From Spirochaetota bacterium (GTDB taxonomy: Bacteria; Spirochaetota; UBA4802; UBA5550): a stretch of 64,000 bases of DNA. The notes under the pieces are model-generated. The model was not told the origin of the DNA. It did not search any database and saw only the letters and a program-made list of their open reading frames with translations. The number at the start of each line of letters is the position of its first letter. The first letter of the stretch is position 1. Positions 38,146-48,487 of this stretch are shown one piece after another. The translations under genes were made by a program, and so were the position numbers. The stretch lies in assembly GCA_017999915.1 (NCBI GenBank), contig JAGNKX010000003.1:248001-312000 (forward strand). Reading direction: 5' to 3'.

Positions 38146-41100
38146 ATGACAGCACAGGAAAACAAAACAATTCTTCTTGTTGAAGATGATCCGATTTCGG
38201 CAATGGCCGAATCGGAATCGATCAGTCGTTTCGGATACAATGTCCTTGTTGCCGGAAACGGCAATGAAGCGGTCCGGATAACCACGGGCCCGGCCATTGT
38301 GGATCTGGTGCTCATGGATATCGACCTCGGCAAGGGGATGGACGGAACAGAGGCTGCGAAGCGGATACTTGAAAAGAGGAATATCCCCATCGTGTTCCTC
38401 ACGGCCCACGGGGAGCGGGAAATGGTGGAGCGCGTCCAGGGAATAACACGGTACGGCTATGTGATCAAGAATTCCGGAGATTTTGTTCTGCAGTCGTCCA
38501 TCGAGATGGCCCTGGAGTTGTTCGATGCCCATCAAAAAATCAGCGAGAGCGAGGCCCGTCAGCGCACCCTTGTGCAGACCATTCCGGACCTGGTCTGGCT
38601 CAAGGACGCGGACGGCGTGTACCTGGCCTGCAATCCCCGCTTCGAGGATTTTTTCGGCGCGCGGGAATCGGAAATTGTGGGTAAAACCGACTACGACTTT
38701 CTGAATAAGGAGCTGGCAGATTTTTTTCGCGACCATGACCGCAGGGCCATGGCAGCGGGAAAACCCACCGTGAACGAGGAATGGATACGCTTTGCCAGCG
38801 ACGGCCGCAGGGCCCTGCTGGAAACCATCAAGACGCCGATGTTCGGAAAGGATGGGAAGCTTATCGGGGTCCTGGGCATCGGACGGGACATTACGGAGCG
38901 CAAGAACGCCGAAGAGGCCCTTCGATCCAGCGAGAGGAGGATGAAGGCTATCGTTGACGGGTCTCCCATTCCGCAGTTTGTTGTCGATAAGGACCACCGC
39001 GTCACCCACTGGAACAGGGCACTGGAGGAGTACAGCAAGATCAGAGCTGAAGATGTGATCGGCACAAGCGATCAATGGAGGGCTTTCTACAGCAAAAAGC
39101 GTCCCTGCCTGGCCGATTTGATAGTGGATGGGAAAGTCGATATGATACCCGGCTTGTATATGGATAATTATCGAAAGTCTCAATTGGTCGATAATGCCTA
39201 TGAAGCCATAGATTTTTTTCCCGCCATGAAGGGAGGTTTGTGGCTGCAATACACGGCGGCGCCCATCATTGATGATGACGGCGAGGTCGTAGGAGCGGTG
39301 GAGACCCTTAATGATATAACCGAAAGCAAGCGCGCCGAGGAATCCTTGCGTAGGAGCGAATCAAATTACCGCAGTGTCATCGAGAATATACAGGACGTCT
39401 TTTACCGGAGCGATGCGAAGGGCAACCTGATCATGGCAAGCCCCAGCTGGGCGCATCTTCTCGGATATGAAACCCTTGAGGAATGTCTTGGGAAGCCCAT
39501 TGCGGGAACATTTTATTATATTCCCGAGAAACGCGCCGAGTTCCTCCAATGCCTGCGTGAAAGCGGGAGCGTCATGAATTACGAGGTAGTGTTAAAAAAG
39601 AAGGACGGCATGCCGGTAACAGTGGAAACGAGCAGTCATTTTTATTATGATAGCGACGGCCGGATAGCCGGTGTTGAAGGCATTTTCAGGGACATTACCC
39701 TGCGCAGGCAGGCGGAGGATGCCTTGAGGATCAATGAGCTCCGTTTGAAGCGGGCCCAGGAAATAGCCCATGTCGGCAACTGGGAGTATAACATTCAAAC
39801 AGGGGATTTCTGGGGATCCGATGAAGCAAAGAGGATTTATGGATTTGAAATCGGACAGCACGCTTTTTCAACTGATGAAGTCGAAAATTGCATTCCGGAA
39901 AAGGGAAGGGTCCATCAGGCCCTGGTTGACCTGGTCGAATCGGGAAAGGAATACAATCTGGAATTTGAGATATATCCCCTCAATTCCTCAAAGCCCAGGA
40001 TCATTACATCTATAGCCGAATTGCAGCCGGATGAACAGAGCGGTCAATTGAAGGTTGTCGGGGTTATCCAGGACATAACCGATCGCAAGCGGGCTGAAGA
40101 GGCGCTTCGCTTCAGCGAGAATCACCTGAAGGCTATTGTCGACGGTTCACCCATTCCGCAATTTGTCATAGACAGGGAACACCGCATCACCCACTGGAAC
40201 CGGGCCCTCGAAGAATACAGCGGCATCAGGTCCGAGGATGTAATCGGCACAAACCAGCAGTGGCGGGCGTTCTATCCCTATGAGCGACCCTGCATGGCCG
40301 ACCTGCTGGTGGATGGCCTTACGAACAGGATATCCCAGTGGTACGCAAGCAAATACAGCCATTCAAAGCTTATCAAGGAAGCTTTCGAGGCAACCGATTT
40401 CTTCCCTGCCATGAGAGGCGGCACATGGCTCTTTTTTACCGCTGCGCCGATATATGGTCCTGACGGCGCAGTCATTGGGGCGGTGGAAACGCTTTCCGAT
40501 GTAACGGACCGCATGCGCGCCGAGGATGCGCTCAAGCTCAATAACCTAAGGCTGGATACATTGCTTAAAGTCAACCAGATGACCGATGCGCCCGTCGAGG
40601 ATATCATGAAATACGTGTTCGAAGAAGCGGTCAGGCTCACGAAAAGCGAGATCGGGTATATGGGACGCATGAACGACGATGAAACGGAAATGGAAGTCCT
40701 GGCCTGGTCCCGCAATGTGATGCCCGAGTGCCGCACGGGGGAGAAAACCCTCCTGTTCCCGGTCGCGTCCGCCGGACTATGGGCAGAAGCCGTGCGCCAG
40801 CACAGGCCCATCGTCACCAATGATTTTGCTGCTCCCAATCCCTGGAAGAAGGGCTATCCGGAAGGCCATATCGTTCTGAAACGGCACATGAATGTCCCGG
40901 TGATGACAGGTTCAAAGATCGCGTTACTGGTGGGTGTCAGCAACAAGGCCGAGGATTATGATGAGACCGATGTCCGGCAGCTGACGCTCTTGATGGATGG
41001 AATGCTGCGCATCATCGAGCGCAAGAAGGCGGAGGATTCTCTTCGCGATTCCCTGGCGGAAAAGGACGTGATATTGAAAGAGCTGTACCACCGGACAAAG

Positions 41101-41682
41101 AACAACATGCAGGTCATATGCAGCATGCTGAACCTGAGGGCTTCGGATATCAAGGATGCGGCGGCCCAGGATATCTACCGTGATATACAGTCCAAGATAC
41201 AGACAATGGCCCTGGTGCACCAGAAGCTGTATGATTCACAGGAACTGTCGAACCTCAATCTGAAAGAGTATGCCGACGGTATCGTCGATCTGATGCTGTC
41301 GAACAATGAACTGTCGCCCGGCGTGGTGAAAATACACCGGTCCGTCGACGCAATCCCGATTTCAATCGACACGGCAATGCCGCTGGGTCTCGTGTTGAAT
41401 GAGCTGATATCCAATTCGATGAAGCACGCCTTCCCGGATAATCGTGATGGTGAAATCTGGATCGATATGCGTTCCACCGATGACGGGATCAAGCTCGAGT
41501 ACCGGGATAACGGTATCGGCCTTCCTCTCGGGTACGATCCCGCCAAGGCTCAGACCCTGGGGATGAATATAATCAGGAACCTGTCGAGAATGCAGCTTGG
41601 CGGGGACCTGCATTTCATGGATGACAGGGGATTCGGCTGCACCATCACCATGGGGACCAAACTCTATCGAAGGCGAATGTGA
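38146..41682 (+). CDS. REC-multi-PAS-GAF HisKA_2 sensor kinase
   Basis: The 1178-residue protein has no membrane helix. It opens with a receiver domain (about 1-125) with acidic pocket VEDD, phospho-Asp in LVLMDID and Lys in VIKNS. PAS units follow at about 140-265, 268-410, 415-535, 540-655 and 660-805. A GAF domain covers about 815-980. A HisKA_2/HATPase core (about 985-1175) has the phospho-His in ELYHRTKNNMQ, the N-box LNELISNSMKHAF and GLPLGYD. The second and fifth PAS units are near copies, both with IVDGSPIPQFV and RITHWNRALEEYS-like text. AAGGA precedes the ATG. The response regulator begins three bases after its stop. Confidence 0.93.
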   Translation: MTAQENKTILLVEDDPISAMAESESISRFGYNVLVAGNGNEAVRITTGPAIVDLVLMDIDLGKGMDGTEAAKRILEKRNIPIVFLTAHGEREMVERVQGITRYGYVIKNSGDFVLQSSIEMALELFDAHQKISESEARQRTLVQTIPDLVWLKDADGVYLACNPRFEDFFGARESEIVGKTDYDFLNKELADFFRDHDRRAMAAGKPTVNEEWIRFASDGRRALLETIKTPMFGKDGKLIGVLGIGRDITERKNAEEALRSSERRMKAIVDGSPIPQFVVDKDHRVTHWNRALEEYSKIRAEDVIGTSDQWRAFYSKKRPCLADLIVDGKVDMIPGLYMDNYRKSQLVDNAYEAIDFFPAMKGGLWLQYTAAPIIDDDGEVVGAVETLNDITESKRAEESLRRSESNYRSVIENIQDVFYRSDAKGNLIMASPSWAHLLGYETLEECLGKPIAGTFYYIPEKRAEFLQCLRESGSVMNYEVVLKKKDGMPVTVETSSHFYYDSDGRIAGVEGIFRDITLRRQAEDALRINELRLKRAQEIAHVGNWEYNIQTGDFWGSDEAKRIYGFEIGQHAFSTDEVENCIPEKGRVHQALVDLVESGKEYNLEFEIYPLNSSKPRIITSIAELQPDEQSGQLKVVGVIQDITDRKRAEEALRFSENHLKAIVDGSPIPQFVIDREHRITHWNRALEEYSGIRSEDVIGTNQQWRAFYPYERPCMADLLVDGLTNRISQWYASKYSHSKLIKEAFEATDFFPAMRGGTWLFFTAAPIYGPDGAVIGAVETLSDVTDRMRAEDALKLNNLRLDTLLKVNQMTDAPVEDIMKYVFEEAVRLTKSEIGYMGRMNDDETEMEVLAWSRNVMPECRTGEKTLLFPVASAGLWAEAVRQHRPIVTNDFAAPNPWKKGYPEGHIVLKRHMNVPVMTGSKIALLVGVSNKAEDYDETDVRQLTLLMDGMLRIIERKKAEDSLRDSLAEKDVILKELYHRTKNNMQVICSMLNLRASDIKDAAAQDIYRDIQSKIQTMALVHQKLYDSQELSNLNLKEYADGIVDLMLSNNELSPGVVKIHRSVDAIPISIDTAMPLGLVLNELISNSMKHAFPDNRDGEIWIDMRSTDDGIKLEYRDNGIGLPLGYDPAKAQTLGMNIIRNLSRMQLGGDLHFMDDRGFGCTITMGTKLYRRRM

Positions 41683-41685
41683 TTT

Positions 41686-42069
41686 ATGAAAATGAAATTG
41701 CTACTTGTCGAGGACGAGGCCATCACGGCCATGAGCATGAGGAAGGACCTGGAGCTGATGGGCTACGAGGTGAGCGATCCCATCGGGACCGGAGAGGAAG
41801 CCATTCGGAAGGCCTTGATCGAGCATCCCTCGGTGATACTGATGGATATCAACATCATCGGGGACATGGACGGAATCGAAACGGTTGAAAAAATCCATGA
41901 CCTGGTGCAAATCCCTGTCATCTATATGACCGGCTATTCCAACCAGGAGATCAAGGATCGCGCCATAAAGACAGGGCCCCTTGCGTACCTTGAGAAGCCG
42001 GTCAATGTCAGGGAAATCAGGCATATACTGGAACTCACCGGCGCCCACGATCAAAACGGCGGCAATTAA
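41686..42069 (+). CDS. Single-domain response regulator
   Basis: The 127-residue protein is a stand-alone receiver. The acidic pair is in LLVEDEA, the phospho-Asp in VILMDINI near residue 54, the switch Thr in IYMTGYS and the Lys in YLEKPVN. There is no output domain, so it acts by protein contact or as a phosphorelay step. It directly follows the multi-PAS kinase, almost certainly its partner. The next gene, 140 bases on, encodes the TPR-CHAT protein. Confidence 0.92.
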   Translation: MKMKLLLVEDEAITAMSMRKDLELMGYEVSDPIGTGEEAIRKALIEHPSVILMDINIIGDMDGIETVEKIHDLVQIPVIYMTGYSNQEIKDRAIKTGPLAYLEKPVNVREIRHILELTGAHDQNGGN

Positions 42070-42209
42070 CGAAAATGAGCTCCCATAAACATGCGGGTAT
42101 CGACCGGTGCGTTGCATCGATGATCCCGCGCTGTACGGGCCACATGTTTTCCGACATGCGACTGAAATGAGTTTGACTCTTATCCTGACACGATATTAAA
42201 TGTATACCT

Positions 42210-45200
42210 ATGCTGATTACCGGATTATCTTCATCCGCCCAAAGGTTCGCCGCGGCGTTGTTCCTGCTGATGGCGTTTTCCCTGCCGGTACAATCCGCCG
42301 TCGATGACGGCCGCGGCGATGGTCTGCCGGGAAAAACGGGCCGTGAAGCCGGCGCCGGCATTATTCCCAAAAAGAAATATGACGAGCTTCTGCGCCATGA
42401 TCGCGCCGGCACCGAGGCGTACAACAGGAATGATTTTAAGACTGCGCAGAGGGAATTTCAGTCCTCGATTGTTCTTGCCGCGGAGATCTTCGGGGAAAAC
42501 AGCGCCCAGACGGCGCAGCGTTATAACAGCCTCGGACTCTCCTGCTATCATCAGGGAGACTATGACCGGGCCATCGACGCCTATGAAAGAGCATTGGGCA
42601 TATATATCGCCGTGGCAGGTGAAAATGATTACCGTGTGGCGTTTTGCCGCCATGGGTTGGGGCAATGCCACCAGTTCAAGGGAGACTATGACCGGGCCAT
42701 TAGATTATATGAAAAGTCCCTCGCCATTTATCTGAAAGACAGTGAGAAGTACCTTACCCACATAGGGACCTGTTATTACGATACCGGAGTGGCGTTCCAG
42801 TACAAGGGGGAGTACGGCAGGGCCGAGGATTATTTCAACAAGGCCCTCGGCATATGCCTGAAGGCCTTCGGGCCGGACCATGCCTACCTGGCGACGATCT
42901 ATTACGCCCTCGGCGAGATAGTAAAATTCAAGGGCGATTTCAACACGGCCCTGGAGCAGTATCGGAAAGCCCAGGACATATACCGGAAATCCTACGGCGA
43001 GAACCATCCCTACGTGGGCACCGCCTATTACGCCATGGCTTTCGCCCACGAGAACAGGGGCGAGTTCGGCAAGGCCGTCGCCTACTACGAGCGGGCCCGC
43101 GCGATCTACACTGGAACCTATGGCGAGAGGCACCCCCATGTGGCGATTTCCTACCATGGCCTCGGAAATGTCCATAATGCCATGGGCGAGTATGAAAAGG
43201 CAATCGCGAATTATGAAAAGGCCATTGAGATAAACAGGGCCGTGTTCGGCGAGAACCATATCAATACGGCGGCCTCCCTCCACGGGCTGGGCAACTCCTA
43301 CATGTCCATCGGCCAGTATGACAGGGCCCTTGCATATTTTGAACGGGTCCTGGCCATCCATCGGGCCGTCCTGGGGGAGACCCATCCCGAGATCGGCCAT
43401 TGCTATGCCGGCATTGCCATGGCGCTGGCGAGGAAGGGCGATTATGACGGGGCGATCCGGAATTTTGAAAAAGCGATGGCCGTCTTTGCCGGCGTCCTCG
43501 GGGACCGCCATCCCAGCGTATCCAATGCCCTTCTCCAGATCGGCAGGATCCACTACACCAGGAACGACATCGTAAAGGGGCGGGAATTTGCCGAAAAGGC
43601 CCTGTCCCGGTACCGGGAAACGTCCCTGCACCCGCAGATCATATTCGCGTCGAACATTCTCGGCATCATGCACCTGAACGCGGGGGATTTCCGTAAGGCC
43701 CGGCCCTATTTCGAGGAGTCCATCGGCCAGATAGAAAAGGCCAGGATCGAGGCCGGCGCGGAAAAGGTCGAATTCATGAGGCGGTATATCGAAAGCTACT
43801 ATTATTCCCTGAAGACGAGCGCGCTGATGAATGACCTGGAGGCCGTGTTCGCCACTGCGGAGGCCATGAGGGCCCGGGGGTTCCTTGACCGCATGTCCCT
43901 CGCCACGGCGCTCTCTGTGGACGGCATCGGCAAGAATGACCGGGAGCGGCTGATCGCCCTGAACGATGAAATAGAGAACCTGGCGTCGCGGAGGAACGCG
44001 GAGATACAGAAGCCCGCAGCCGGGCAGGATGCCTCCGCCCTTGTCCGCATCTCCATGGACCTCGAGCGTAAGGAGAAAGCCTTCCAGGACCTTGACGCTA
44101 AGCTGATGGAGAACGAGAAGTACCGGGGCCTGAGAAAGCCCCACATGGCCACACTGGCCGAGGCGCGCGCCCTCTGCGGGACCGATTCCGCCATCCTCGA
44201 GTACGTAATATGGGAGGAAAAGGACAAGGATTCGGACGCGTGGACCCACAAGCAGTCGTTCTGCCTCGTGGTGACGGGAAAAGGGGAGAAGCTTGTGCCC
44301 CTGGATAAAGACTTCGACTACACCGGCACCATCGCCAGGTACCGCGATTCCATAATCGATCAGAATAAAAAGAAGGACCGCGACGCCCTGGCCGTGCTTC
44401 TCCATGAAAAGCTGGTGACGCCGGTGGAGAATGAGCTCGGGGGCATCAGGAACATTATCATCATCCCTGACGGGTCCCTGGCCTTCCTGCCCTTTGACGC
44501 CCTGCGGAAAAAAAGCGACGGCCCCTACCTGTGCGAATCCTATTCGATCACGCTGAGCCCGTCGGTGTCGGTGATGCTCATGGTGCAGAAGCGCCGCTAC
44601 GGCTCGGAGAGAAAGTCTTTCCTCGCCTTCGGCGGTGCAGTCTATTCTTCCGGGACCGGGGAAAAACGGGGTAAACATCATTTGGCGCAGGACAAGGATG
44701 TCACCGTGAAATCAAAGGAATATTTTTCAGAAGAGGGAAGCCGCGGCAGGCCCCTGTACTACCGGAACCTGGGGCTGCAGTGGGACAATATCCCCGGGAC
44801 CCTCGATGAGATCAACGAGATCGATAAGGACGTATACAACAAGGAAAAGACCAGGGTCATAAAGGGCGCGGCCGTGTCGGAGTCGAAGATCAAGGAGCTG
44901 TCGCGGCAGAACGAGCTTATGCGCTACAAGTCGGTGCATTTCGCGTGCCATGGGTATTTTGACGCGGACCTGCCGTCATATTCGGCGGTGGTGATGTCCG
45001 AGGTTTCCGGCACGGTGAAATCCCCGGAGGACGGGTACCTGTCGGTGCCGGAGGTGGCGTTGATGAAGCTCCAGGCTGACATCGTGAACCTCTCCGCCTG
45101 CGAGACCGGCCTCGGGAAGGTGGTTCAGGGAGACGGCGTTATCGGACTGGCCCGGGCCTTCCAGGAGGCGGGCGCGAACCGGGTCGGCGTCACCCTGTGG

Positions 45201-45371
45201 GAGGTGGCCGACGAGCCCACCAAGAACTTCATGGTGGCGGTGTACCGCAGGGTGGTGCGGAAGAAGATCTCCTTCGGCGACGCGTTTTCCGAGACAAAGC
45301 GCGAGTTCATCAGGTCGCCGGAGTTCGGCGATCCCTATTTCTGGAGCGCCTTTGTGCTCTACGGCCGGTAG
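42210..45371 (+). CDS. Exported TPR-CHAT protein (caspase-like peptidase fold)
   Basis: The product has 1053 residues. A signal peptide (about 1-30, ending VQSAVDD) points to the periplasm or beyond. Residues 60-470 are about nine tetratricopeptide repeats of the kinesin-light-chain type, each close to YDRAIxxYEKALxIxxxxxGExHPxVA. A helical linker follows, then a CHAT domain (about 720-1053). The caspase-type dyad is present: His914 in HFACHG and Cys964 in LSACETG, followed by QGDGVIGLARAF. CHAT peptidases cut specific partners when TPRs receive a signal. The two-component pair lies upstream and a FecR/CHASE2-cyclase pair downstream. No clear ribosome-binding site precedes the ATG. Confidence 0.92.
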   Translation: MLITGLSSSAQRFAAALFLLMAFSLPVQSAVDDGRGDGLPGKTGREAGAGIIPKKKYDELLRHDRAGTEAYNRNDFKTAQREFQSSIVLAAEIFGENSAQTAQRYNSLGLSCYHQGDYDRAIDAYERALGIYIAVAGENDYRVAFCRHGLGQCHQFKGDYDRAIRLYEKSLAIYLKDSEKYLTHIGTCYYDTGVAFQYKGEYGRAEDYFNKALGICLKAFGPDHAYLATIYYALGEIVKFKGDFNTALEQYRKAQDIYRKSYGENHPYVGTAYYAMAFAHENRGEFGKAVAYYERARAIYTGTYGERHPHVAISYHGLGNVHNAMGEYEKAIANYEKAIEINRAVFGENHINTAASLHGLGNSYMSIGQYDRALAYFERVLAIHRAVLGETHPEIGHCYAGIAMALARKGDYDGAIRNFEKAMAVFAGVLGDRHPSVSNALLQIGRIHYTRNDIVKGREFAEKALSRYRETSLHPQIIFASNILGIMHLNAGDFRKARPYFEESIGQIEKARIEAGAEKVEFMRRYIESYYYSLKTSALMNDLEAVFATAEAMRARGFLDRMSLATALSVDGIGKNDRERLIALNDEIENLASRRNAEIQKPAAGQDASALVRISMDLERKEKAFQDLDAKLMENEKYRGLRKPHMATLAEARALCGTDSAILEYVIWEEKDKDSDAWTHKQSFCLVVTGKGEKLVPLDKDFDYTGTIARYRDSIIDQNKKKDRDALAVLLHEKLVTPVENELGGIRNIIIIPDGSLAFLPFDALRKKSDGPYLCESYSITLSPSVSVMLMVQKRRYGSERKSFLAFGGAVYSSGTGEKRGKHHLAQDKDVTVKSKEYFSEEGSRGRPLYYRNLGLQWDNIPGTLDEINEIDKDVYNKEKTRVIKGAAVSESKIKELSRQNELMRYKSVHFACHGYFDADLPSYSAVVMSEVSGTVKSPEDGYLSVPEVALMKLQADIVNLSACETGLGKVVQGDGVIGLARAFQEAGANRVGVTLWEVADEPTKNFMVAVYRRVVRKKISFGDAFSETKREFIRSPEFGDPYFWSAFVLYGR

Positions 45372-45415
45372 GAACCGGCCGGGACCGTCGGATTGATAAG
45401 CCGCCGGAATTATAT

Positions 45416-45571
45416 TAGCAGTTTGCTGAAAAACAGCAAACTGCTAAGCGATACATGGATGTATCGCCTTTTTTCGAGGCGTTAGCCGAGAAAAATGTGA
45501 GGTTTTACGAATTCACTTCGTAAAACCGACCCTGAAAAACTCCAAGGAAGGAGTTTTTCGGGAAACTGTTA
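45416..45571. repeat. Composite palindromic repeat with four hairpins
   Basis: Outer ends tagcagttt and aaactgtta are imperfect inverted repeats. Inside lie four hairpins in a row. agcagtttgctg pairs with its complement (45417-45445). gcgatacat pairs with atgtatcgc. ggttttacga pairs with tcgtaaaacc. A stem near 45529-45562 contains gaaaaactcc and ggagtttttc. The second hairpin shares its tacatggatgta centre with the element at 9010-9123. The element lies between the CHAT gene and the FecR gene. Confidence 0.75.
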
Positions 45572-45595
45572 GAACTATCATTGAGGAGAAGTGTT

Positions 45596-46576
45596 ATGGA
45601 ATCCCTGCACAGGTTGACATGTATCGTGGCGGTTGTTCTGGCCGGTTTCATTCTTGTGATGCCGGCCCAGGGGCATGATGCCGCGCCTTCCGCGGCAGGC
45701 TTCGTGGCCGGGATCCAGGGAAAAGGATATATCCTCCGCAACAAGGATAAAATCATGATATCCGGTATGGACCTCCTGTTCAGGGGCGATTTGGTGCAAT
45801 TGGCAGAGGGCGCGAAGGCGAGGATAAGCATCTGCGGCGCCAGGGGCTATGAAATCCGGGGCAGCGCCATTTTCACCATTGGCGGATCTGGCATAACCTT
45901 TAAAAAAGGAAAATCCTCAAAGACCTACGCCGTTGACAGGAAGGCCTGCGCCGCGGCCCTCGAGGTGTTCTTGAAGAATGAAAAGAAGATACCGGAAATG
46001 GTCACGGGGGAGAGAAAAGGGACCCTCATCCTCAGGTTCAGGAAAAAAGGGGAGCGCCGCGGGGTTTACGTTGTGCGCGGCAAAAAGCAGGCGCCGCGGA
46101 TCGAGCTTTACAGCGAAAAGCTGCTGCCGCAAAAGCCGCTGATCCTCTGGTCGCCGGTTAAGGGAAGGGCCTCGTACCGGGTCGTGATCAAGGACGGCGG
46201 CGAGACCCTCTGGAGCTCCGCGGTTGAGAAGAACAGCTGCCGGTATCCTGAAAGCGCTCCCGCCATGGCCGAGGGCAGGGATTATGATATTCTGATAGAA
46301 GCGGTTGGAGCGCAGGGGGAAGTGCTGGCCGGCGTCAGCGGCACCATTTCTCTCTTCGGCGCTGCTGATCGCGAGTCGCTTCGCAAGGACGAGGCTTCCA
46401 TTAAAGAAATGACGGCTGAAACTTCCCCGGACAGGCATATCCTTTTGGGAAAACTCTACGAGGCCCACGGACAGATTGCCGACGCACTGGCCTCCTACGA
46501 GAAGGCCCTGTCTCTGGACAGCGGCAATGCCGGACTGAAGGAGCGCGTCGCGCTTTTAAAGAACATGATGGAATAG
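45596..46576 (+). CDS. FecR-type protein with C-terminal TPR-like helices
   Basis: The ATG at 45596 has GAGGAG at good spacing. The 326-residue protein has a signal peptide (to about residue 28, MPAQGHDA) and a FecR-like beta domain with KIMISGMDLLFRGDLVQLAEGAKARI (about 45-115). A beta unit of FN3 type follows (about 185-265, with LWSPVKGRASYRVVIKDGG), then a TPR-like helix pair at the end (DALASYEKALSLD). It is probably periplasmic. The CHASE2 cyclase starts six bases downstream, repeating in reverse order the cyclase/FecR pairing of 10120-14116. Confidence 0.82.
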   Translation: MESLHRLTCIVAVVLAGFILVMPAQGHDAAPSAAGFVAGIQGKGYILRNKDKIMISGMDLLFRGDLVQLAEGAKARISICGARGYEIRGSAIFTIGGSGITFKKGKSSKTYAVDRKACAAALEVFLKNEKKIPEMVTGERKGTLILRFRKKGERRGVYVVRGKKQAPRIELYSEKLLPQKPLILWSPVKGRASYRVVIKDGGETLWSSAVEKNSCRYPESAPAMAEGRDYDILIEAVGAQGEVLAGVSGTISLFGAADRESLRKDEASIKEMTAETSPDRHILLGKLYEAHGQIADALASYEKALSLDSGNAGLKERVALLKNMME

Positions 46577-46582
46577 GGGCCC

Positions 46583-48487
46583 ATGGTAAAAAAAAGAATT
46601 CAGACAGCGGGCAGGGCGGGGGTGCTCCTCGCCTGTTTTGCCCTGATAGCCCTGTTCAGCCGCACGGCCCTGCATGGGTATTTGGAGAACAAGGTTTTTG
46701 ACAGCTTCTTTCATTTCAGGGACTCCCTTGCCGCATCCCCGGCCGGCGCTTCACCGATAACTATCGTCGGTATAGACAGGAAGACTCTGGGGGCCTACAA
46801 GGCCCCGGTCATATTCTGGGACCGTGAATTCGCCGATACGATCAGGACGATCGCATCGGCCCGGCCCAGGGCCATCGGTTTTGATATCCTCCACCTGGCC
46901 CAGACTGATACAGACCGGTACAAGGCGAAAAAGGATCGCCTTAAAGAAGTTCTCTTAAGAACAGGAAACCTGGTTCTGCCCTATTCGTCCGAAACGGGCG
47001 ATATCCCCATTTATATCGCCCGGCACCTGGAAGAGTTGCTGGGCCTAGGCGATGACATGAGCCCCGGGGACAGGATCAGGATGCTTCCGGTCGCGGAGAA
47101 GACCACCGGCGTAAGCTTCGGCTTCGTGGAGCTATCCGAGGACGATGACGGCATAATAAGGCGCGCCGTCCTGGCCGATGGCGGCGACGGGACCAGGGCA
47201 AGTTTCCCCCTCAAGATATTCATGCGTTACCACGGGATAACAGATGAAAAAGTGATCCTGAAGGATGGACGGCTCCAGGCGGGAAATCGGGCGATTCCAC
47301 TCGATCAGGGCGCCCTTATAATAAATTACGCCGGCCCGCCGGAAACCTTCAGGGCGGTGCCGATGATCGATGTGAACAGGAAAAAAAACGATCCGACCTT
47401 CCTGGCGCGGCATTTCAGGGACCGCGTCGTCCTCATCGGCGTGTGGGACCGGATGCTGATGGACATACACAATACTCCCTATGTTTCTTCGTTAAATAGA
47501 TCCTCCCGCACCATGTACGGCGTAGAGATCATCGCCAATATCCTCGACACCATGCTGCGCCAGAGATATATCCGAAAGAGCGGTACCGCGATAGCCATGG
47601 CCCTCTGCTTCCTTTTTGCCCTGGGCGGCATCATGCTCACCAGGCTTTCAACTGCCAGGGGCATCGCGGTCGTGGCCGCGTCCGAGGCGGCATACCTGGC
47701 CGCCGCCTTCGGCCTCTTCGCAGTCTGCCGTTATGAGCTTTCGATTTTACCGCCGCTCCTGGCCCTTCCCCTGGGCTTCAGCTCGGGCTATCTTTTCGAG
47801 CACTACATCCTCGGCAGGGACAGCATATTATTGAAGAGCGTGCTCGGGAGCTATCTCGATCCCCGCGTGGTGGAACGTGTCGTGAAAAGCGGCGATACTG
47901 GCATCCTCAAGGGACAGCGACGGGAGATCACCGTGCTCTTCTCGGATATACGGAATTTTACCGCTCTCTCGGAAAGGATGAGCAGGCCTGAGGACGTGGT
48001 GGATATTCTCAACGTGTATCTGCCGGAGATGTGCGGCCTCATCCTGGCCTCGGAAGGGTGCGTGGACAAGTTCATCGGCGACGGCATCATGGCGTTCTGG
48101 AACGCGCCCAACGACGTGGAGCGCCACGCGGAAAAGGCGGTGCGGTGCGCCATGGCGATGCAGGAGCGCATGGCCGCGGTGAACGAGAAGCTGCGCATGA
48201 AAGGCCTGGTGAACGAGGGCCTCCGGATCGGCATCGGCATCCACACCGGCTCCGCCGTGGTGGGCAACATCGGCGGCGAGGCGAAGAACGACTATACCGC
48301 CATCGGCGACACCGTGAACCTGGCGTCGCGCCTCGAGGGAAAGACCAAGGACTATGAATGCAATATCATCATCAGCGCTGCGGTGCGCAACGAGATCAGG
48401 GATATGGGACTCGCATTGAAGCCCATCGGAAAGATCGAGGTGAAAGGAAAGAAAAACAAGGTCCAGGTGTACGGGATTAAGGACTGA
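46583..48487 (+). CDS. CHASE2-domain class III adenylate cyclase
   Basis: The 634-residue protein has one N-terminal helix and a periplasmic CHASE2 sensor (about 35-325, with PITIVGIDRKTLG, RAIGFDILH and VVLIGVWDRML). Three closely spaced helices (about 335-410) follow, then a class III cyclase domain (about 440-630). Metal-binding Asp455 is in LFSDIR and Asp500 in KFIGDGIM; DYTAIGDTVNLASRLE completes the active site. CHASE2 domains sense unknown extracytoplasmic signals. AGGGG precedes the ATG. It closes the locus formed by kinase, regulator, CHAT and FecR genes, so cAMP may be one of its outputs. Confidence 0.94.
   Translation: MVKKRIQTAGRAGVLLACFALIALFSRTALHGYLENKVFDSFFHFRDSLAASPAGASPITIVGIDRKTLGAYKAPVIFWDREFADTIRTIASARPRAIGFDILHLAQTDTDRYKAKKDRLKEVLLRTGNLVLPYSSETGDIPIYIARHLEELLGLGDDMSPGDRIRMLPVAEKTTGVSFGFVELSEDDDGIIRRAVLADGGDGTRASFPLKIFMRYHGITDEKVILKDGRLQAGNRAIPLDQGALIINYAGPPETFRAVPMIDVNRKKNDPTFLARHFRDRVVLIGVWDRMLMDIHNTPYVSSLNRSSRTMYGVEIIANILDTMLRQRYIRKSGTAIAMALCFLFALGGIMLTRLSTARGIAVVAASEAAYLAAAFGLFAVCRYELSILPPLLALPLGFSSGYLFEHYILGRDSILLKSVLGSYLDPRVVERVVKSGDTGILKGQRREITVLFSDIRNFTALSERMSRPEDVVDILNVYLPEMCGLILASEGCVDKFIGDGIMAFWNAPNDVERHAEKAVRCAMAMQERMAAVNEKLRMKGLVNEGLRIGIGIHTGSAVVGNIGGEAKNDYTAIGDTVNLASRLEGKTKDYECNIIISAAVRNEIRDMGLALKPIGKIEVKGKKNKVQVYGIKD

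What the first reader, a model, noticed from the sequence alone, without database searches (positions are those of the whole stretch)
38146..48487. Candidate envelope-to-cAMP signalling locus built around an exported CHAT peptidase
Sequence: five consecutive rightward genes encode a REC/multi-PAS/GAF kinase, a lone response regulator, a TPR-CHAT protein with signal peptide and intact His914/Cys964, a FecR-type exported protein and a CHASE2 adenylate cyclase. Known: CHAT is a caspase-like fold gated by TPRs; CHASE2 is an extracytoplasmic sensor domain; CHAT and CHASE2 occur fused in some cyanobacterial proteins. Inference: the CHAT protein may cleave the FecR-type or CHASE2 protein in the periplasm and so switch cAMP production, with the two-component pair controlling expression. 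I know of no described system with this order.
Basis: partly seen in the sequence, partly recalled or inferred. Interest (0 to 1): 0.75.

Follow-up and report, generated by a model that had tools for sequence, protein, structure and literature searches.

The report
Envelope-sensing cAMP genes beside exported caspase-like protein
A spirochaete carries a two-gene envelope sensor (an exported helper protein plus a membrane cAMP-making enzyme) next to an exported caspase-like protein; the sensor pair is of a published kind, while the repeated company of the caspase-like gene, seen also in cyanobacteria, appears undescribed and is testable.

Summary
The five open reading frames are real. The catalytic His914/Cys964 of the TPR-CHAT protein and the CHASE2 adenylate cyclase are confirmed. 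Three corrections. (1) It is not one five-gene unit: four strong hairpins, one a textbook terminator, separate CHAT from the FecR-like/CHASE2 pair, and kinase plus receiver form a third unit. (2) The 'FecR-type' protein fails the FecR family model. Its layout (signal peptide, beta domain, FN3-like domain, TPR) matches MtxA of magnetotactic bacteria, a gene also followed by a CHASE2 cyclase. (3) The lone response regulator has no output domain, so 'controls expression' is unsupported. Linkage is absent from the five congeners searched, but recurs elsewhere: CHAT–FecR-like–CHASE2 is a tight operon in another spirochaete family, CHAT–FecR-like pairs occur in two more genomes, and in cyanobacteria 31 of 40 DUF928 genes lie near CHASE2 and 17 of 40 near CHAT (2.9 expected). 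FecR-like protein plus CHASE2 cyclase clusters are already published. I found no paper on the CHAT association in the open-access library. Most likely: an envelope-to-cAMP sensor pair with an accessory periplasmic TPR-CHAT protein. Cleavage of the partners by CHAT is possible but unshown. New variant of a known kind; interest 0.42.

The parts
38146..41682 (+). Cytoplasmic REC - four PAS - GAF - HisKA_2 - HATPase sensor kinase (1178 aa), no transmembrane segment; own unit with the next gene (3-bp gap). Probably a neighbour, not part of the cAMP module
41686..42069 (+). Stand-alone receiver (REC only, 127 aa), no DNA-binding or other output domain
42210..45371 (+). Exported TPR-CHAT protein (1053 aa): signal peptide about residues 1-30, TPR repeats about 60-515, CHAT 728-1053
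   Evidence: model m35b8809d6979, pLDDT 84, matches Craspase TPR-CHAT and separase
44949..44951 (+). Codon of catalytic His914 (HFACHG motif)
   Evidence: His in 32 of 32 aligned sequences
45099..45101 (+). Codon of catalytic Cys964 (LSACETG motif)
   Evidence: Cys in 30 of 32 aligned sequences
45415..45562 (+). Four consecutive perfect hairpins, the second (45448-45467) followed by CTTTTTT: predicted terminator block separating CHAT from the downstream pair
   Evidence: (z -7.6 and -6.3)
45596..46576 (+). Exported 'FecR-like' protein (326 aa; upstream TTG at 45581 less likely): signal peptide, beta-rich N-terminal domain with conserved Cys pair, FN3-like domain (about 46133-46357), TPR hairpin (about 46433-46528)
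   Evidence: relatives in G005 (51%), G010 and G016
46583..48487 (+). CHASE2 class III adenylate cyclase (634 aa): TM 8-26, CHASE2 18-346, TMs at 334-352 and 361-379 (and probably about 385-405), cyclase 446-632; 6 bp after the FecR-like gene

Best explanation
The core is a two-gene envelope-to-cAMP sensor. The exported FecR-like/FN3/TPR protein (45596-46576) is the periplasmic partner of the CHASE2 adenylate cyclase (46583-48487). It is inferred to relay an envelope or outer-membrane state to the CHASE2 ectodomain, which normally restrains the cytoplasmic cyclase, so that cAMP rises and acts through CRP-type receptors. The TPR-CHAT protein (42210-45371), transcribed separately, is an exported caspase/separase-fold protein with intact His/Cys. 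It is probably an accessory of this kind of module: its TPRs bind a partner and the CHAT domain either senses or clips it. The kinase-receiver pair is most likely an unrelated neighbour. Shown: gene anatomy, predicted export signals, catalytic residues, the predicted unit boundary, recurrence of the linkages. Inferred: physical partnership of genes 4 and 5, direction of control, any role of CHAT.
For: Genes 4 and 5 are 6 bp apart, behind a terminator block. Layout of gene 4 (signal peptide, beta domain, FN3-like, TPR) equals that of MtxA, whose gene is followed by a CHASE2 cyclase (PMC4439547). [quoted passage not shown] In this phylum many CHASE2 cyclase genes have an exported (lipo)protein gene next to them, e.g. 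FecR plus barrel-like protein, or M48-peptidase lipoprotein. Functional precedent: CHASE2 cyclases of S. meliloti raise cAMP on a signal relayed by outer-membrane NsrA (PMC13001267, PMC7529298), and CyaD1 without CHASE2 makes cAMP constitutively (PMC5498481). CHAT linkage: tight operon CHAT - FecR-like - CHASE2 in G144 (L068); CHAT - FecR-like pairs in G016 and G010, the G010 protein matching gene 4 at E 5e-4; cyanobacterial DUF928 loci with CHASE2 in 31 of 40, CHAT in 17 of 40 against 2.9 expected.
Against: No congener searched carries the cluster; in G005 the gene-4 relative stands alone. Only 2 of 29 strong CHAT genes in the phylum sample have CHASE2 close by. CHAT and genes 4-5 are separated by terminators. 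Homology of gene 4 to MtxA or DUF928 is not established by sequence. The model of gene 4 is poor (mean pLDDT 46). No biochemical evidence for any step.
Confidence: 0.6

Rival explanations
1. One reading: CHAT is a periplasmic protease that cleaves the FecR-like protein or the CHASE2 ectodomain and thereby switches cAMP synthesis on (or off).
For: Intact His/Cys and a confident caspase/separase-type fold, also matching the transmembrane anti-sigma factor DdvA; exported; linked to CHASE2 in two lineages, and fused to it in cyanobacteria; loss of CHASE2 gives a constitutive cyclase in S. meliloti (PMC5498481).
Against: No substrate evidence. CHAT is in a separate unit here and has no CHASE2 neighbour in most genomes of the phylum. 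CHAT-CHASE2 fusions argue as well for a binding or sensing role. Some CHATs have lost the Cys (Scalindua).
Confidence: 0.17
2. CHAT sits here by chance or shared strand only; the functional unit is the FecR-like/CHASE2-cyclase pair alone, an ordinary member of the known class.
For: Terminator block between CHAT and the pair; no close relative of this CHAT gene in congeners; most CHAT genes in the phylum are not near CHASE2; closest CHAT relatives (G008, G007) have other neighbours.
Against: Recurrence of CHAT - FecR-like - CHASE2 in the same order in G144, and CHAT - FecR-like in G010 and G016; strong cyanobacterial association.
Confidence: 0.35
3. An anti-phage or cell-death system: a cyclic-nucleotide cyclase plus caspase-like effector (Pycsar- or Craspase-like).
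For: PADLOC PycC models hit the cyclase domain (8.7e-31); CHAT is the effector fold of Craspase and SAVED-CHAT.
Against: The hits are to the generic class III cyclase domain; the cyclase is a CHASE2 membrane receptor; CHAT is exported; no other Pycsar or Cas component model matched among the five proteins.
Confidence: 0.03
4. All five genes form one regulated pathway in which kinase and receiver control the cAMP module.
For: Same strand, 10 kb, bounded by leftward genes.
Against: The receiver has no output domain, the kinase no envelope part; 140-bp and 224-bp gaps, the latter with terminators; no such kinase-receiver pair noticed beside CHAT or CHASE2 at the relative loci I inspected (by eye, not by a kinase search).
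Confidence: 0.07

Closest known systems
MtxA and the CHASE2 adenylate cyclase gene after it (magnetotactic bacteria; PMC4439547, PDB 4Z29)
   Same: Signal peptide, N-terminal domain, FN3/Ig-like domain, C-terminal TPR; similar size (about 35 kDa); gene followed by a CHASE2 cyclase
   Different: No sequence match found; MtxA loci not reported with CHAT; mtxA deletion has no known phenotype
Campylobacterota CHASE2-cyclase / FecR outer-membrane protein / TPR protein / cAMP phosphodiesterase cluster (PMC9239204)
   Same: CHASE2 cyclase clustered with a FecR-type envelope protein and a TPR protein
   Different: Phosphodiesterase present there; no CHAT reported; window protein fails the FecR model
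Cyanobacterial DUF928 - CHASE2(-cyclase) - TPR-CHAT loci (seen here: L118, L128, L136, L148 and others)
   Same: Small exported protein next to CHASE2 cyclase, TPR-CHAT in the neighbourhood; C-terminal half of similar layout
   Different: DUF928 in place of the FecR-like protein; gene order differs; many CHASE2 genes there carry no cyclase
Sinorhizobium meliloti NsrA - CyaK/CyaD1/CyaD2 (PMC7529298, PMC13001267)
   Same: Envelope protein relays a signal to CHASE2 cyclases
   Different: NsrA is an outer-membrane barrel; no CHAT reported
Burkholderia BiofilmReg operon (PMC5192318)
   Same: LysM/FecR periplasmic protein next to a CHASE2 receptor
   Different: CHASE2 histidine kinase instead of cyclase, with a DNA-binding response regulator
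Craspase TPR-CHAT/Csx29, separase, and DdvA (transmembrane anti-sigma factor, 8ROT)
   Same: Fold of the CHAT region (Z 28.5 over 344 residues, 25.3 over 300, 22.9 over 291)
   Different: Csx29 works in the cytoplasm with a CRISPR effector; DdvA is a membrane anti-sigma factor

Membership tests
CHAT peptidases (PF12770) | CHAT domain over the curated cut-off | tested here: met
   189 bits against a cut-off of 24
CHAT peptidases (PF12770) | Catalytic His/Cys dyad | tested here: met
   H914, C964
CHAT peptidases (PF12770) | Proteolytic activity | not testable with these tools
   needs purified protein
CHASE2 adenylate cyclases | CHASE2 between transmembrane segments plus class III cyclase domain | tested here: met
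CHASE2 adenylate cyclases | Metal, adenine-Lys and Asn/Arg residues of the cyclase | tested here: met
   D455, K496, D500, N579, R583 conserved with CyaB 3R5G
FecR (PF04773) | FecR domain over the cut-off / VRGTxF motif | tested here: not met
   the relative in G010 keeps only a partial TAVRG motif
MtxA-type periplasmic partner | Signal peptide + N-domain + FN3-like + TPR, gene directly before a CHASE2 cyclase gene | tested here: met
   (weak model; region 182-259 to FN3 folds, Z up to 7.6), gene order
MtxA-type periplasmic partner | Sequence homology to MtxA | tested here: inconclusive
   PDB searches up to E=10 did not show 4Z29 among the rows listed
DUF928 (PF06051) | Pfam DUF928 match | tested here: not met
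   none up to E=1
DUF928 (PF06051) | Remote profile similarity | tested here: inconclusive
   132 collinear columns but probability 8%, p 0.004
Craspase / Pycsar defence | Cas7-11 or a Pycsar effector encoded alongside | tested here: not met
   PADLOC scan of the five proteins: only generic TPR, receiver and cyclase matches

The most novel reading that the evidence does not exclude
A caspase-fold protease working in the periplasm gates transmembrane cAMP synthesis by clipping or clamping a small exported partner of a CHASE2 receptor, in a recurrent CHAT - exported partner - CHASE2 arrangement shared by spirochaetes and cyanobacteria.
Probability: 0.15. Interest if true: 0.8.

Novelty: new variant of a known kind. 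Interest (0 to 1): 0.42.

Why it matters
What CHASE2 receptors sense, and what the very numerous exported TPR-CHAT proteins do, are both open. Their recurrent company, with a small exported partner protein, gives a concrete and cheap test of whether caspase-fold proteins regulate second-messenger receptors from the periplasm.

Tried and rejected
FecR membership of gene 4: rejected by Pfam, by the absence of this gene among the listed own-genome FecR matches, and by profile comparison. One five-gene operon: rejected on the hairpin block. Defence system: rejected. Orthologues of gene 4 or of the three-gene set in congeners: none but the lone G005 gene; one search scored only six candidates per genome because TPRs flood the search, so the CHAT family search was used instead. 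Search for the G144 FecR-like protein in its family found only itself. AlphaFold of gene 4 with two sequences failed (pLDDT 46), and its fold matches are only suggestive. Sequence search of the PDB with the CHAT profile found nothing; only fold comparison did. MtxA could not be compared directly because its sequence was not obtained. The hairpin block is not repeated within the window; the whole genome was not available as a file. DdvA paper not held. Plasmid collection search for the cyclase gave only partial matches.
Full report
What is there. The window lies in a 5.46-Mb genome. Relatives whose contigs have the same lengths as titled records are spirochaetes (G007:C43, 21134 bases, equals JALOTL010000040.1 'Spirochaetes bacterium'; G302:C18, 61311 bases, equals a Treponema record), so the host is inferred to be a member of Spirochaetota. 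Five rightward ORFs occupy 38146-48487 between leftward genes: a sensor kinase, a receiver, TPR-CHAT, an exported 'FecR-like' protein and a CHASE2 cyclase. Pfam confirms the domains of four of them.

Units. Kinase and receiver are 3 bp apart. Receiver and CHAT are 140 bp apart with no strong structure. CHAT and gene 4 are separated by 224 bp containing four perfect hairpins, two pairs folding at -31.7 and -33.8 kcal/mol (z -7.6 and -6.3), the second hairpin followed by CTTTTTT. Gene 4 starts best at ATG 45596 after AGGAG, and ends 6 bp before the cyclase gene. I therefore read three transcription units: kinase-receiver; CHAT; gene 4 plus cyclase. This is prediction, not transcript data.

The proteins. 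TPR-CHAT: N-terminal hydrophobic stretch followed by QSA, TPRs of kinesin-light-chain type, CHAT with H914 and C964. A model of residues 554-1053 on an alignment of 32 sequences (pLDDT 84, pTM 0.83) matches Craspase TPR-CHAT (Z 28.5, 344 residues), separase (Z 25.3, 300 residues), the transmembrane anti-sigma factor DdvA (Z 22.9, 291 residues) and gingipain (Z about 18). Two of the 32 sequences, both Scalindua, have Phe in place of the Cys. Gene 4: signal peptide, beta-rich domain with two conserved cysteines, a region that aligns to FN3 folds (Z up to 7.6, about 75 residues, on a poor model), and a TPR hairpin. Gene 5: one N-terminal transmembrane segment, CHASE2, further transmembrane segments, and a class III cyclase with the catalytic residues of CyaB.

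Conservation. In the 59 genomes searched (own genome included) gene 4 has one relative, in G005 (51%), and there it stands without CHAT or CHASE2 neighbours. The best cyclase match in those genomes other than itself is 38% identical over 65% of the query. CHAT domains occur in 63 of 296 genomes of the phylum; among 29 strong ones only this one and G144 lie near CHASE2. So the set is not conserved in close kin. But G144, of another family, has CHAT - small exported FecR-like protein with a helical tail - CHASE2 in the same order with junctions of a few bases (L068). A rough estimate of two such adjacencies by chance is 1e-4 (with gene counts that I assumed). G016 and G010, in the same family as the window genome, have CHAT followed by a FecR-like protein gene (3 bp apart in G016, about 220 bp in G010); the G010 protein matches gene 4 at E 5e-4 and reciprocally 7e-4. 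G066 has a small exported protein with a TPR directly before a CHASE2 gene.

Wider. A scan of the genome-contig collection with CHAT as bait returned cyanobacterial loci in which a DUF928 protein, a CHASE2 cyclase and TPR-CHAT are adjacent. Turned round, 40 DUF928 genes from cyanobacterial genomes have CHASE2 within about 8 kb in 31 cases and TPR-CHAT in 17, against 2.9 expected from CHAT density (the genomes are related, were reached through a CHAT search, and CHAT genes cluster, so the p-value of 1.6e-8 is optimistic). CHAT-CHASE2 fusions exist there (L196). Gene 4 aligns weakly with DUF928 over its C-terminal half (p 0.004, probability 8%): a lead, not a result. In the phylum itself CHASE2 cyclases often have an exported gene next to them: true FecR proteins plus barrel-like proteins, or M48-peptidase lipoproteins. 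A general rule, exported partner next to CHASE2 receptor, fits all of these.

What is known. Campylobacterota CHASE2 cyclases cluster with a FecR outer-membrane protein, a TPR protein and a cAMP phosphodiesterase (PMC9239204). MtxA has the layout of gene 4 and is followed by a CHASE2 cyclase gene (PMC4439547). A LysM/FecR protein precedes a CHASE2 kinase in the Burkholderia BiofilmReg operon (PMC5192318). S. meliloti relays a signal from outer-membrane NsrA to CHASE2 cyclases (PMC7529298, PMC13001267), and CyaD1 lacking CHASE2 is constitutive (PMC5498481). No paper in the open-access library holds both 'CHAT domain' and 'CHASE2' (the near misses do not describe the association). Subscription papers are not covered.

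Mechanism. Most likely the exported partner relays an envelope state to CHASE2, releasing the cyclase. CHAT is a probable accessory. Proteolysis of the partners is the most novel reading not excluded (0.15). The anatomy, recurrence and catalytic residues are shown; partnership, direction of control and any cleavage are inferred.

Verdict. New variant of a known kind; the CHAT association lifts it above routine, the lack of conservation in close kin and the published FecR/MtxA-CHASE2 precedents hold it down. Interest 0.42.

Noticed in passing
L196-L235 (cyanobacteria): 31 of 40 DUF928 genes lie within about 8 kb of a CHASE2 gene, and 17 of 40 near TPR-CHAT, some also near filamentous-haemagglutinin-type exported proteins; DUF928 looks like the partner protein of CHASE2 receptors there.
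   Followed up: partly
L239, L245-L247, L249, L252, L253, L269, L270: CHASE2 adenylate cyclases of spirochaetes lie beside, and often overlap, a gene for an M48-peptidase-like exported protein or lipoprotein (Pfam-tested in L246, L249, L252, L253, L270), often with an SH3-like exported protein: possibly a peptidase-linked cAMP sensor.
   Followed up: partly
L040:3777-9432; L257-L262: A second type of envelope-cAMP set in the same genome and order: FecR protein, 450-510-aa exported barrel-like (alginate-export-like) protein, long CHASE2 cyclase. In L040 the upstream end of the FecR ORF is interrupted by an in-frame stop codon.
   Followed up: partly
window 45415-45562: Four perfect hairpins in tandem in one intergenic gap, each of different sequence, not repeated elsewhere in the window.
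   Followed up: partly
L099, L102 (Candidatus Scalindua): TPR-CHAT proteins in which the catalytic Cys is Phe (LSAFDTGLG / LSAFDIGLG): probable non-proteolytic CHATs.
   Followed up: no
L090, L094, L076: Exported proteins that by eye resemble LPP20 lipoproteins, next to TPR-CHAT genes in several phyla.
   Followed up: no
L038:2462-6732: The lone gene-4 relative in G005 lies about 2.7 kb from a cyclic-nucleotide-binding (CRP-like) regulator gene (Pfam cNMP_binding).
   Followed up: no
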